20,428 nucleotides of DNA from a virus, in IMG/VR virus record IMGVR_UViG_3300027796_000056, positions 1 to 20,428 of that record. One strand, written 5' to 3'. Every line of letters begins with the position of its first letter. The first letter of the stretch is position 1. The notes below the pieces were generated by a model. The model searched no databases, was not told the origin of the DNA, and worked only from the letters and a program-made list of their open reading frames with translations. A program made the position numbers and the translations under genes. This document shows positions 3,563 to 9,092 of the stretch, piece after piece.

Positions 3563-3654
3563 TTCTCTCTTGTCTTTAGGTATTTAACAACCTCAAAGCC
3601 TATGCAACACAGGGCCGCAACAGCTATTATCATTCCAATTACAAACATCGTCAT
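3559..3654 (-). CDS. Tiny single-span membrane protein, 31 aa
   Basis: The ORF has 31 codons. It opens MTMFVIGMIIAVAALCCIG, a membrane-spanning helix, and ends in a short basic tail (KYLKTREK). It fits exactly between its neighbours: its ATG overlaps the stop of the DnaA-like gene (ATGA at 3654-3651), and its TGA overlaps the next ATG (3562-3559). Perfect coupling on both sides plus a clean transmembrane profile makes this a convincing gene despite its size. The function is unknown. Confidence 0.7.
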   Translation of the reverse strand: MTMFVIGMIIAVAALCCIGFEVVKYLKTREK

Positions 3655-3998
3655 ACTATTATCAGTTCGTCATTTTCAACCTTGCATCCGCTGTATATCT
3701 CCAGTGACAATGTAAGCGGTATCTCCAACTCAGCGTGCCTGTCACATATCTTATCTACCTTAGCCTTAAACTGCCTGTCGGTAGCACAGAGATTGTTAAC
3801 AGTGATAATTGAGTGTACCACCGTTGCATGATTACGGTTAAAGTAATCTCCTATATAGCGTAGGGTGCTGCTGCTGTACTTATGCATCATCCACATACAT
3901 ACCTGGCGTGAGTTGACAATCTCCCTAAACCGTTTGGGTGTAAACAAGTCCTCAACACAACATCCGAATAACTCGCAGGTGTACTGCTCAAGTGTCAT
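3651..3998 (-). CDS. Stand-alone DnaA domain IV-like DNA-binding protein
   Basis: This 115-aa protein matches the DnaA C-terminal box-binding domain. It has a basic stretch RFREIVNSRQVCMW and then the signature YIGDYFNRNHATVVHSI (about 48-64), equivalent to GxxFGGRDHSTVxHA in DnaA. There is no AAA+ ATPase domain. The start at 3998 is inferred: it makes an ATGA overlap with the upstream 52-aa gene, whereas an in-frame ATG at 4064 would overlap that gene by about 70 nt. Such proteins could compete with host DnaA for its boxes or mark a phage origin. The adjacent replication gene and methyltransferase support a replication role. The domain call is firm and the role is inferred. Confidence 0.82.
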   Translation of the reverse strand: MTLEQYTCELFGCCVEDLFTPKRFREIVNSRQVCMWMMHKYSSSTLRYIGDYFNRNHATVVHSIITVNNLCATDRQFKAKVDKICDRHAELEIPLTLSLEIYSGCKVENDELIIV

Positions 3999-4153
3999 AG
4001 CCATATCGCTGCTGCTATTGCCACTGCCAACAAACCCAGGAGGATAAAAAAGAATGTCCGGCATCCCTTCATCGTGCGCATCTCCTCCTCAAGATAATCC
4101 TCAGTCCTCTTGCGGTTGTAATACTCGTCACTGGTCATCATAAGTTTTTTCAT
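3995..4153 (-). CDS. Small C-terminally anchored membrane protein, 52 aa
   Basis: This ORF runs from the ATG at 4153 (MKKLMMTSDEYYNRKRTEDY) to a TGA at 3997-3995 that overlaps the DnaA-like start. The N-terminal 30 residues are charged and helical. The last 20 (FFFILLGLLAVAIAAAIW) form one transmembrane helix at the very C-terminus, so the protein would be tail-anchored with a cytoplasmic head. It starts 3 nt after the methyltransferase stop. Its existence shortens the DnaA-like gene. The function is unknown. Confidence 0.68.
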   Translation of the reverse strand: MKKLMMTSDEYYNRKRTEDYLEEEMRTMKGCRTFFFILLGLLAVAIAAAIWL

Positions 4154-4923: not shown

Positions 4924-5649
4924 TTATTTTACTGCGTATTTGGTTAGGTTATGTTTTGCAACATCGTTAGGGTGCGCCCATACTGTTTTAGGCATATCAG
5001 GTAAGTTGAGTGCGGTCATCTGCTGCCAGATGTCTTTGTTGTTAAGGGCAAGCTGACACATCTCATCGTAGGTTTTGTACTTAGGAGCATAGGCAGGAGC
5101 TTTAGTAGCCGTGTCATGCTCCCGGTTATTCCACGTTGTCAAAGCGGCATCCCAGTTGCGCATTGTCTGTGAGCCTACCTTCCATCCCTTGCTCTCGTAA
5201 AAGGCAAAGAACGCATCAGCGGTGAAGGATGTTATCTCACGCTCGGCCATACGCTCAGTAATTTCAGAAAGCTGCGGCGGTATATTATTGTATTTCTTAC
5301 TTCCCTTTTCTATTTCTATTTCATATTTCTTATTTCTTATTTCCATATGGGCGTCCATATGGTCTTCCGTTTTTAGGTTCTTTCTTCTACTTTGATTGTA
5401 TTTAGCACGTCTCTCCGTTTCTAATAACATCCTTTCATTGTAGTAAAACCCTTGCTCGTCCTTGCGAAACTTAGCCCAAATCTTTGCATCAAAGCTGCCG
5501 CAGATAGTAAGCATATCATCCTCCGACAATTTACCGTTCTGATGCTGCAAAGCGAGCAAGGTTATATACTTTCCTTTCTGCTCATTAGTCATAAGCATCG
5601 TTCCGGTCAGAAAATCTTGACTATAAAATAAAAAACAAGGGTCTTTCAT
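4924..5649 (-). CDS. Phage replication/primosome-type protein (DUF1376-like N-terminus)
   Basis: The N-terminus (residues 1-75: FLFYSQDFLTGTMLMTNEQ, then YITLLALQHQNGKLSEDDM) resembles the winged-helix DUF1376/YdaU domain of phage replication proteins. A variable, charged linker follows (about 85-130). The C-terminal segment around 150-172 (FYESKGWKVGSQTMRNWDAAL) has the W-x-aromatic and NWxxAL pattern seen in replisome organisers and DnaD/O-like proteins that recruit helicase to the phage origin. At 241 aa it has a normal size. It lies directly downstream of the pentamer array, where many phages keep their origin. Domain evidence is by eye, so the exact family is less certain than the replication role. 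Confidence 0.72.
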   Translation of the reverse strand: MKDPCFLFYSQDFLTGTMLMTNEQKGKYITLLALQHQNGKLSEDDMLTICGSFDAKIWAKFRKDEQGFYYNERMLLETERRAKYNQSRRKNLKTEDHMDAHMEIRNKKYEIEIEKGSKKYNNIPPQLSEITERMAEREITSFTADAFFAFYESKGWKVGSQTMRNWDAALTTWNNREHDTATKAPAYAPKYKTYDEMCQLALNNKDIWQQMTALNLPDMPKTVWAHPNDVAKHNLTKYAVK

Positions 5650-5658
5650 AAATTACTT

Positions 5659-5674
5659 TTATTAAGTTTAATAA
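5659..5674. promoter_or_regulatory. A/T-only-armed palindrome before the replication gene
   Basis: TTATTAA-GT-TTAATAA is a perfect 7-bp-arm palindrome, lying 9 nt before the replication gene ATG. It abuts the downstream end of the pentamer array. It could be an operator for a dimeric regulator or an easily melted segment next to an origin. I cannot tell which. Confidence 0.4.
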
Positions 5675-6285
5675 CCATACCTGCCAAACCAAACCTCACC
5701 TCACCCCGTCTTACCCGATCATACCCAACCCCATCTCACCTAACCTCACCTGCCTAACCGTACCCTACCGTACCTATCCAAACCAGAACACTCCGCACCG
5801 GACCTCGCCTTACCATACCTGCCAAATCTCACCTTGCCTAACCAAGCCTCACCATGACGTGCCATACCTCACATTACCAAACCTCACCTGCCATACCATG
5901 ACTTATCTTAACAAACCTTGTCTTACCATACCAACCGCACCCCAACGCTCCTAACCTTGCCGCACCTGCCTCACCGTACCAAAACTCAACTGACCGCACC
6001 ATGCCAAACCTAACGAAACCCCAACCCACCGCACCTGCCTCTCCTCGCCATACCGTACCTAATCTCACCTTAACCGACCTTACCGGACCAAGCCTCACCT
6101 GCCTTACCAAACCACTCCATACCGCACCGTATCCCATCGTACCACACCGTACCTTACCTGCCTTACCACACCTCTCCGTACACAACCGGACCTATACGCA
6201 CCGGACCAAACCTAAGCACACCTGCCGCACCGAACCGGACCCCACCCCACCTTACCGTACCTAATCATACCTCACCTCACCTGCC
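5673..6285 (-). repeat. Phased degenerate GGTNN pentamer array with GGCA phase markers
   Basis: On the minus strand about 610 bp consist of pentamers with consensus GGTNN (NNACC on plus). By hand count 74 of 112 pentamers keep GGT exactly and 109 of 112 keep the first G, while the NN pair varies freely. A tetramer GGCA (TGCC on plus) interrupts the run ten times. ACCTGCC starts at 5679, 5748, 5817, 5886, 5964, 6033, 6097, 6156, 6220 and 6279. The spacings are 69, 69, 69, 78, 69, 64, 59, 64 and 59, each 4 nt plus 11-13 pentamers; the 78 unit has one extra tetramer, AACC. Units do not align beyond the consensus, so this is selected periodicity and not recent tandem copying. Frequent GGTAA and GGTGA put stops in the sense frames. 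It lies between two early genes, upstream of the replication gene. The function is unknown. Confidence 0.92.
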
Positions 6286-6288
6286 AAT

Positions 6289-6747
6289 CTATGCCATTGC
6301 CTCAATAGCCTCCTTAATAAGCTCTCTGACCTTTTCAAACTGATTGTAAGTCTTTAGCTTAACTTGAATAGATACCAACTGACTGCGTGTGGTCTTCCTT
6401 ACAAACTCCACATCGTCAGCGTCAAACGTAGCGATACTCTTATACCCCTCACCACTACATACAACCTCGTACACATCCAGGTTGCGTGTCTCACCATCAG
6501 AGATAACAACCACCTGTATGTTATTCAGAATAATCCTCGCCTGCTGTATCCTCCAATGATAACTTGCAACCTCATCATCCCATTCAAACAGCGGATGTAA
6601 TACGGACCGCTTCGGTGTAGCAGCCTCAACAATTAAGGTAGGCGTGAGCGTACCATTTAGGTTCTTAATCCGGTCCAGCTCTTCAGCGACCGCAGCGGCT
6701 TCAACTCCTTTGTTTAAGCCCTTAATTCTCCAGCTATATCCTTCCAT
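6289..6747 (-). CDS. Uncharacterised phage protein, 152 aa
   Basis: I know no function for it. The sequence has a conserved-looking centre (VLHPLFEWDDEVASYHWRIQ, about 49-68) followed by QARIILNNIQVVV, a pattern I associate with phage proteins of the replication/recombination block. The C-terminal part is charged and helical (QLVSIQVKLKTYNQFEKVRE). The stop lies 3 nt from the last GGCA of the pentamer array. The start follows the upstream RAMP-like gene by 2 nt, so the two are probably one translational unit and may work together. Confidence 0.8.
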   Translation of the reverse strand: MEGYSWRIKGLNKGVEAAAVAEELDRIKNLNGTLTPTLIVEAATPKRSVLHPLFEWDDEVASYHWRIQQARIILNNIQVVVISDGETRNLDVYEVVCSGEGYKSIATFDADDVEFVRKTTRSQLVSIQVKLKTYNQFEKVRELIKEAIEAMA

Positions 6748-6749
6748 AA

Positions 6750-7346
6750 TTATGCAACATTATCAAGTTCAAAACGACCATAGTTAAACTTGCCCTTCTC
6801 AGGACGCATCTCACCAATACCACAGCCATAACCAGCAGCCTTAACAAGCTGAAATATCTGGTCCATGCTGATAATACCTGCGTTAAATTCAACCGTCAGT
6901 ACAGCGGACCATTCAACATATTCCGGTCTGTAACGGATGTCAGCAGAACCCATACCAACACGTACCATGTCGGTCCTTAATCTTGCCTCTCCGTAAATCC
7001 TGATAAGTTGTGTTTCCTCGCAGTCAGCCTTCACGAAGAATGCCATCTGAGTGTCTTTCATTACCATGCCAATCATCTTAGCACCACGTATCATTGCAGC
7101 CTTCACACCAGCGGCCGGGAAACCCTCCCATCCCTCTGGGGAAACGTGCTTAGCCTGCTCGAAGTCATCTTCCGGTACACGGATGTCATGCTTCTTGTTC
7201 TTAGCCACACCACCCTGCTTGTCCTGAATTTCTCTCTTTGCCTTTTCGCTCCACTTGTGAACGATAAGCGGTGACACACCTACGATTGGAATTTTTACTG
7301 TCTGAATGTTAAATTCCTTTACTTCAACTTTGTTACTTGTTTTCAT
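6750..7346 (-). CDS. Phage protein with RAMP-like glycine-rich C-terminus
   Basis: This 198-aa protein opens with VKIPIVGVSPLIVHKWSEKA (about 17-36) and closes with AAGYGCGIGEMRPEKG followed by YGRFEL. The Gly-rich GxGIGExRPE...GRF pattern resembles the glycine-rich loop of RAMP (Cas7/Cas6-type, RRM-fold) RNA-binding proteins. That is a motif resemblance only. A nucleic-acid-binding role in phage recombination or replication fits its place between an HNH gene, the array and the SSB-like gene. I am sure it is a real gene. The function is not established. Confidence 0.82.
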   Translation of the reverse strand: MKTSNKVEVKEFNIQTVKIPIVGVSPLIVHKWSEKAKREIQDKQGGVAKNKKHDIRVPEDDFEQAKHVSPEGWEGFPAAGVKAAMIRGAKMIGMVMKDTQMAFFVKADCEETQLIRIYGEARLRTDMVRVGMGSADIRYRPEYVEWSAVLTVEFNAGIISMDQIFQLVKAAGYGCGIGEMRPEKGKFNYGRFELDNVA

Positions 7347-8538: not shown

Positions 8539-9092
8539 TATCGAATGATTATAGTGTCACCAACCTCACCGAAAGTCCACACCCTCATGCCCTCACCCGT
8601 GAAGGCGTGCCCCGGATCAGTCCAGCTGATAAGGGTATTATTGAAGTAATCCTCCCAAACAGGTATAGTATCAGTTCTCTGCCCATCTGCCCATAAATCC
8701 GTTGTGGCAAGTATCCTGTCGGCTATGTTATATATTGCGTCTATCTGCTCATACAAGCCCGTAATCAGTGTGCTATCGCCAAGCGTTATTACCGGAGGTA
8801 CAGTGTCAATAAGCGTCACGGTAAACATCAAATCAGTATGGTTATTGAAGTTGTCAATAGCCCGTATCAGCACGGTAGTAGTAGGAGTTGTCAGCCAGCT
8901 CCCCCGTGTCGGTGACTGCCATACTGTGTCAATGCCACAGTTATCGGTGTAGGTGAACATAGGTAGGTAATCCGGCAGGGCCGCACCGCACCCCTCGCCC
9001 ACCTGTAAATACTGCGGAGGCACTTGTGAGAATGTACAAACGCAACTGCTCAGGAGCAGCGCAAAAAGCGAAAATGTAATCAGTTTTTTCAT
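8538..9092 (-). CDS. Exported lipoprotein with HYR/Ig-like domain
   Basis: This 184-aa protein starts with a signal peptide (KKLITFSLFALLLSSC) whose LSSC fits a lipobox at C17. It should therefore be lipidated and carried to the host envelope. The mature part has features of HYR-type beta-sandwiches, YTDNCGIDTVW (about 49-59) and IDTVPPVI near 100, then an acidic, Trp-containing C-terminal region. Export is unexpected for a gene embedded among replication genes, well away from the lysis and tail blocks. Possible roles are altering the host surface, blocking superinfection, or a cargo gene. Secretion is well supported and the role is inferred. Confidence 0.8.
   Translation of the reverse strand: MKKLITFSLFALLLSSCVCTFSQVPPQYLQVGEGCGAALPDYLPMFTYTDNCGIDTVWQSPTRGSWLTTPTTTVLIRAIDNFNNHTDLMFTVTLIDTVPPVITLGDSTLITGLYEQIDAIYNIADRILATTDLWADGQRTDTIPVWEDYFNNTLISWTDPGHAFTGEGMRVWTFGEVGDTIIIR

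What the first reader, a model, noticed from the sequence alone, without database searches (positions are those of the whole stretch)
5673..6285. A 610-bp phased pentamer array (GGTNN) of no recognised class
The sequence keeps G at position 1 of 109 of 112 hand-parsed pentamers and exact GGT in 74, with the other two bases apparently free. Units cannot be aligned with each other beyond that, so it is not a young satellite. The period appears to be under selection while the filler is not. It is non-coding in sense frames because GGTAA, GGTGA and GGTAG create stops. I know of no phage element with this form.
Basis: seen in the sequence. Interest (0 to 1): 0.92.

Follow-up and report, generated by a model that had tools for sequence, protein, structure and literature searches.

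The report
Phage array of gapped guide RNAs
The odd five-base repeat is a bank of about ten RNA guides belonging to VIPR, a CRISPR-like phage weapon described in a 2026 preprint; the two 'free' bases in each repeat spell out, two letters at a time, the DNA of rival phages to be silenced.

Summary
The array is real: window 5674-6281, minus strand, 113 pentamers (G first in 110, GGT in 75). It is divided by GGCA tetramers into blocks of 11-13 units, with one irregular stretch. It starts 7 nt after the stop of gene 6289-6747, just downstream of gene 6750-7346. That gene encodes a RAMP (Cas7/Csm3-fold) protein homologous to solved 'SUSP1 Vipr' (PDB 36pp, E=4e-15). This identifies a VIPR system (Viral Interference Programmable Repeat; preprint PMC13142463, 2026): Vipr, an accessory gene (vap) and GGY/NN guide RNAs whose NN pairs read the target with one skipped base. 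'No recognised class' is therefore wrong, and the 'free' bases are the message. Independent support: about 80 IMG/VR contigs carry such arrays, always on the vipr strand (125/125), as do 21 of 21 cultured actinophages. Guides from relatives fit the one-base-skip rule best and point at rival phage genes (vap, portal, tape measure), in codon phase. Arrays turn over by whole blocks between phages with 99%-identical vipr-vap. No target was found for the window's own guides. Not in the preprint's main text: GGCA punctuation, block duplication. Transcription and activity here are inferred.

The parts
6750..7346 (-). vipr: RAMP/Cas7-like protein, 198 aa (phrog_4652)
   Evidence: Profile of 37 homologs hits PDB 36pp_D 'SUSP1 Vipr protein' E=3.8e-15; AF2 pLDDT 92.4; best Foldseek matches Csm3/Cas7 subunits, E down to 1e-6, VIA Z 11.4
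6289..6747 (-). vap: accessory protein, 152 aa (phrog_15946), stop codon TAG at 6291-6289
   Evidence: Same family found in 63 of 65 vipr loci; AF2 pLDDT 92.1, no PDB fold match; not the same family as the Felixounavirus (SUSP1-type) vap, E=0.21
6282..6285 (-). first GGCA, 3 nt after the vap stop codon (ATT GGCA)
   Evidence: Sequence; the 7-nt gap from stop codon to first unit recurs in many loci
5674..6281 (-). vrRNA array: 113 (GGY)NN pentamers in about 10 guide blocks
6227..6281 (-). guide block 1 (11 units): NN = GA GA AT TA AC AA GG GG CC TC GC
   Evidence: GGCA separator at 6223-6226
6163..6222 (-). guide block 2 (12 units)
   Evidence: GGCA separator at 6159-6162
6104..6158 (-). guide block 3 (11 units)
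   Evidence: GGCA separator at 6100-6103
6040..6099 (-). guide block 4 (12 units)
   Evidence: GGCA separator at 6036-6039
5971..6035 (-). guide block 5 (13 units)
   Evidence: GGCA separator at 5967-5970
5893..5966 (-). irregular block: 6 units, GGTT (5933-5936), 8 units; possibly a decayed or fused guide
   Evidence: GGCA separator at 5889-5892
5824..5888 (-). guide block 7 (13 units)
   Evidence: GGCA separator at 5820-5823
5755..5819 (-). guide block 8 (13 units)
   Evidence: GGCA separator at 5751-5754
5686..5750 (-). guide block 9 (13 units), followed by GGCA 5682-5685 and GGTAT GGT
4924..5649 (-). next gene of the operon (phrog_15768, weak DUF1376, replication-like), 24 nt after the array; probably not part of the system

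Best explanation
This is a VIPR locus. The array is transcribed with the vipr-vap operon and yields RNA guides. Vipr, a small Cas7-like protein, coats each guide, probably one subunit per pentamer holding the GGY. The exposed NN pairs read double-stranded DNA as xNN xNN xNN, skipping one base per step, which in genes is usually the wobble base. A block of 11-13 units is one guide of 22-26 informative bases, and GGCA marks where one guide ends and the next begins. The bound complex, helped by Vap, represses genes of competing phages. Shown here: the genes, the fold, the strand and position linkage, the block structure, and the one-base-skip fit of guides from relatives. Inferred from the preprint: transcription, RNP formation, repression. 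Inferred here only: the role of GGCA. Unknown: the targets of the window's own guides.
For: Vipr identity: 36pp, E=3.8e-15; RAMP fold. Linkage: arrays on the vipr strand 125 of 125; 66 of 82 pattern loci with an array have vipr or vap against 0 of 24 chance pattern hits; starting from Vipr alone, 48 of 65 loci have an array, and the 15 of the 17 GC-rich remainder that were rescanned all have GGY-type arrays on the vipr strand, none on the other. 21 of 21 actinophages: 2-7 sense matches each, 0 reverse, 0 control. Code: 723 guides against 2.27 Mb, guides with a hit at E<0.02: 22 at skip 1 against 10, 3 and 4 at skip 0, 2, 3; in their own loci, hits at E<0.01: 14 against 4, 2, 1. Examples: a guide of L036 matches the vap gene of relative L093 at 19/20 but its own vap at 17/20; a guide of L011 matches the portal/NUDIX gene of L083 at 20/22, its own at 18/22; three guides of L139 and L157 converge within about 180 bp of one tape-measure gene. 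These are in codon phase with the skip at the wobble base. Mechanism from PMC13142463.
Against: No target found for the window's own guides: six guide patterns against IMG/VR gave only chance-level extension. The skip-1 excess is modest in absolute terms and many of the 22 hits may be chance; the two strongest have E about 2.5e-4 and 5.5e-4 per guide, before allowing for 723 guides. No RNA data. The SUSP1-type 3' tail is absent and the vap family differs. Nine actinophage genomes gave no significant targets.
Confidence: 0.95

Rival explanations
1. The array is a DNA or RNA binding platform (replication origin, centromere, packaging site, or TRAP-like RNA ligand) in which only the GGT phase matters and NN is filler.
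For: It lies in an operon near replication-like genes (DnaA domain IV protein, DUF1376-like protein); the 5-nt period resembles the NAGNN spacing of TRAP sites (from memory).
Against: NN strings of relatives match rival genes best by one specific rule, in codon phase; arrays follow vipr and vap genes across unrelated phages; NN differ about 1.8 times more per site than scaffold positions between homologous blocks.
Confidence: 0.02
2. A decayed satellite, mutational artefact or assembly artefact.
For: Low-complexity look; some units depart from GGY.
Against: Same architecture in about 80 contigs and in 21 of 21 complete cultured phage genomes, always sense; GGCA is by far the commonest separator (711, next 32).
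Confidence: 0.01
3. A VIPR system whose guides in this array type overlap the GGCA boundaries, the 'staggered arrays with overlapping vrRNAs' of the preprint, so that blocks are not whole guides and GGCA is not a strict border.
For: In the 22 skip-1 hits, the two units just outside the block match the target at 0.38 (55/144) against about 0.27 for units 3-5 outside. The preprint mentions such arrays (its fig. S18 was not readable here).
Against: Match falls from about 80-95% inside the best hits to near background outside; adjacent blocks 0 and 1 of L139 have separate targets about 126 bp apart in reversed order; blocks are shared, inserted and lost as GGCA-bounded units.
Confidence: 0.3

Closest known systems
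VIPR type II of Felixounavirus SUSP1 / Pseudomonas fulva prophage (PMC13142463; PDB 36pp)
   Same: RAMP Vipr homolog, adjacent small vap gene, GGY/NN tandem repeats of 9-16 units, phage-borne, one-base-skip code in relatives
   Different: Window array is continuous and GGCA-punctuated, without the structured 3' tail between guides; vap is an unrelated family by sequence (E=0.21); about ten guides against four in SUSP1
VIPR types with 'staggered arrays' (PMC13142463 fig. S18, text only)
   Same: Possibly the same array type; guides packed head to tail
Class 1 CRISPR-Cas (Csm3/Cas7 backbone, type III)
   Same: Fold of the RNA-coating subunit; arrays of guides
   Different: No long repeats or contiguous spacers, no cas1/cas2 or Cas10 among the window genes scanned

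Membership tests
VIPR | Vipr protein: RAMP homolog with RRM core and G-loop | tested here: met
   36pp homology E=3.8e-15, AF2 + Foldseek/VIA to Csm3/Cas7
VIPR | Tandem GGY/NN repeats, 9-16 units, hypervariable NN | tested here: met
   11-13 units per block, one irregular block of 6+8; NN entropy 3.9 of 4 bits mid-block across 104 arrays
VIPR | Adjacent vap gene | tested here: met
VIPR | Target read as xNN, one-base skip | tested here: inconclusive
   Supported for arrays of relatives; no target found for the window's own guides
VIPR | Array transcribed into vrRNAs that bind Vipr; target repression | not testable with these tools
   Needs RNA sequencing and reporter assays
VIPR type II (SUSP1 clade) | Separate vrRNAs with an invariable structured 3' tail | tested here: not met
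   Blocks abut with only GGCA between them; a Felixounavirus locus has separate tracts with other sequence between
VIPR type II (SUSP1 clade) | vap of the SUSP1 family | tested here: not met
   Felixounavirus vap against the Vap profile E=0.21
CRISPR array | Repeats separated by contiguous spacers, with cas genes | tested here: not met
   5-nt units; no cas1/cas2 or cas10 found among the window genes scanned
Satellite / tandem repeat | Alignable repeat units | tested here: not met
   TRF finds only short fragments; NN highly variable
Rfam RNA family | Match to a covariance model | tested here: not met
   No match up to E=1

The most novel reading that the evidence does not exclude
GGCA-punctuated VIPR arrays are a distinct architecture in which each GGCA-bounded block is one guide, and guides are gained by block duplication followed by divergence of the NN letters under selection, rather than by copying target DNA as CRISPR does; rival phages aim guides at each other's vap genes.
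Probability: 0.45. Interest if true: 0.75.

Novelty: new member of a known kind. Interest (0 to 1): 0.6.

Why it matters
VIPR is proposed as a forerunner of CRISPR and reads DNA by a gapped code. This locus and its relatives extend it to a GGCA-punctuated array form across many uncultured phages and in cultured Mycobacterium and Gordonia phages, give independent support for the one-base-skip code, and raise a testable question: how can a guide whose letters are interspersed with GGY be written? Near-identical phages whose arrays differ by whole, partly duplicated blocks suggest duplication and divergence.

Tried and rejected
BLAST of the array region against phages: no match, as expected for hypervariable NN. 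Rfam: none. Coding: 11-13 pentamers plus a tetramer keep no frame. Satellite: rejected. TRAP-like ring ligand and replication origin: considered, abandoned once vipr was identified. Window guides searched in IMG/VR as 9-unit interiors of blocks 8 and 5 and 8-unit interiors of blocks 9, 2, 1 and 4: extension beyond the searched letters at chance. Window guides against the window itself: nothing. Actinophage guides against nine actinophage genomes: nothing above the chance threshold. Vap fold: no PDB match by Foldseek, so its function stays open. The preprint's supplement (types, fig. S18) could not be read, so the VIPR type was not assigned.

Full report
OBSERVATION. The minus strand of 5674-6281 parses into 113 pentamers, G first in 110 and exact GGT in 75. 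The 5-nt autocorrelation stands far above the rest of the window. The tetramer GGCA cuts the run into blocks of 11, 12, 11, 12, 13, (6+GGTT+8), 13, 13 and 13 units, and one GGCA sits 3 nt after the stop codon of gene 6289-6747. The gap of 7 nt between that stop and the first unit recurs in many relatives.

SURROUNDINGS. The genes here run on the minus strand: 6750-7346, then 6289-6747 (2 nt apart), the array, then 4924-5649 after 24 nt. The contig is phage: TerL, HNH, N6-methyltransferase, DnaA domain IV. It is a 20,428-base virus record.

RELATIVES BY ARRAY. A pattern scan, GGTNNGGTNNGGCAGGTNNGGT, found 106 stretches in IMG/VR; 82 held long arrays, nearly all with GGCA separators. Clustering their proteins gave two families as immediate neighbours: the window's 6750-7346 and 6289-6747 families. 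66 of 82 array loci have one or both, and several of the rest have arrays at a contig end; 0 of 24 chance pattern hits do.

WHAT THE PROTEINS ARE. The 6750-7346 profile matches PDB 36pp 'SUSP1 Vipr protein' at 3.8e-15. Its AF2 model (pLDDT 92.4) matches Csm3/Cas7 subunits of type III and VII CRISPR complexes. The neighbour has a confident model but no PDB fold match. After the 36pp hit and before reading the paper, the notebook recorded the hypothesis that NN is a discontinuous guide. The preprint PMC13142463 then named the system: VIPR, a Vipr RAMP, a vap gene, vrRNAs of GGY/NN repeats, and a one-nucleotide-skip code. It is the only paper on it found in the library.

REVERSE TEST. Fetching by Vipr alone gave 65 loci with enough flank: 48 have arrays by the GGT-tuned parser and 63 have vap. 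Of the 17 without, all GC-rich, 15 were rescanned with a GGY parser; each has an array on the vipr strand and none on the other. Strand agreement is 125 of 125, counting duplicates of some contigs. In 21 of 21 cultured actinophages with a close Vipr, sense GGCA arrays are present with no reverse or control hit.

THE CODE. Blocks of all arrays were decoded with 0-3 skipped bases against 2.27 Mb of fetched phage DNA, arrays masked. Guides with a match at E<0.02: 22, 10, 3 and 4 for skip 1, 0, 2 and 3. In the guides' own loci, hits at E<0.01: 14, 4, 2 and 1 for skip 1, 0, 2 and 3. The best cases are biologically sensible: L036 to the vap gene of relative L093 (19/20; own vap 17/20), L011 to the portal/NUDIX gene of L083 (20/22; own 18/22), and three guides of L139 and L157 to one tape-measure gene. 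One of the 22, the window-type block (L088) to L119/L120, was fetched with that very pattern and is not evidence. E-values assume equal base frequencies, so they are rough.

ARRAY TURNOVER. L024, L026, L029, L035 and L104 have vipr+vap 99% identical, yet most pairs share few or no blocks. L035 and L104 (99.9%) differ by one whole block, a diverged copy of its neighbour. Between homologous blocks, NN sites differ at 0.108 and scaffold sites at 0.059 per site. The last unit before GGCA is less variable than the others (3.49 against about 3.9 bits).

GGCA. Adjacent blocks can have separate targets (L139). Matching falls sharply at the block edge, but the two flanking units match at 0.38 against about 0.27 further out, which leaves room for slightly overlapping guides as in the preprint's 'staggered arrays'.

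LIMITS. No target was found for the window's own guides. No expression data exist. The VIPR type is unassigned because the supplement could not be read. The system kind is known; the locus, the GGCA punctuation analysis, the block turnover and the extra guide-target pairs are what this report adds.

Noticed in passing
L239-L257, L236, L237 (cultured Mycobacterium and Gordonia phages): GGCA-punctuated VIPR arrays next to 'hypothetical protein' genes; some arrays are overlapped by annotated hypothetical ORFs (for example UmaThurman gene 40). Donkeykong has two more blocks than Brocalys.
   Followed up: partly
L101:1569-1780 and 8612-8831: Two long GGTNN runs of about 38-42 units with at most one GGCA and no Vipr or Vap detected on the contig; one follows a clamp-loader-like gene. 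Possibly another array type.
   Followed up: partly
L079:3299-4247 block 1: A guide matches, at 20/26, what appears to be the antisense strand of the vap gene in its own locus; a second hint, with L036/L093, that vap is a favoured target.
   Followed up: partly
L236 and L255 (Gordonia phages ODay and Ecliptus): Reciprocal 15/18 skip-1 matches, each phage's guide to the other near the tape-measure gene; below the chance threshold of the search.
   Followed up: no
window 3651-4064: Phage protein with a DnaA domain IV (DnaA-box binding) without the ATPase part.
   Followed up: no
L011, L080, L083: Arrays on contigs where no vipr or vap was found; L011 and L083 carry two arrays each.
   Followed up: no
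window 5893-5966: Irregular block with a GGTT in place of GGCA, perhaps a fused or decaying guide.
   Followed up: no
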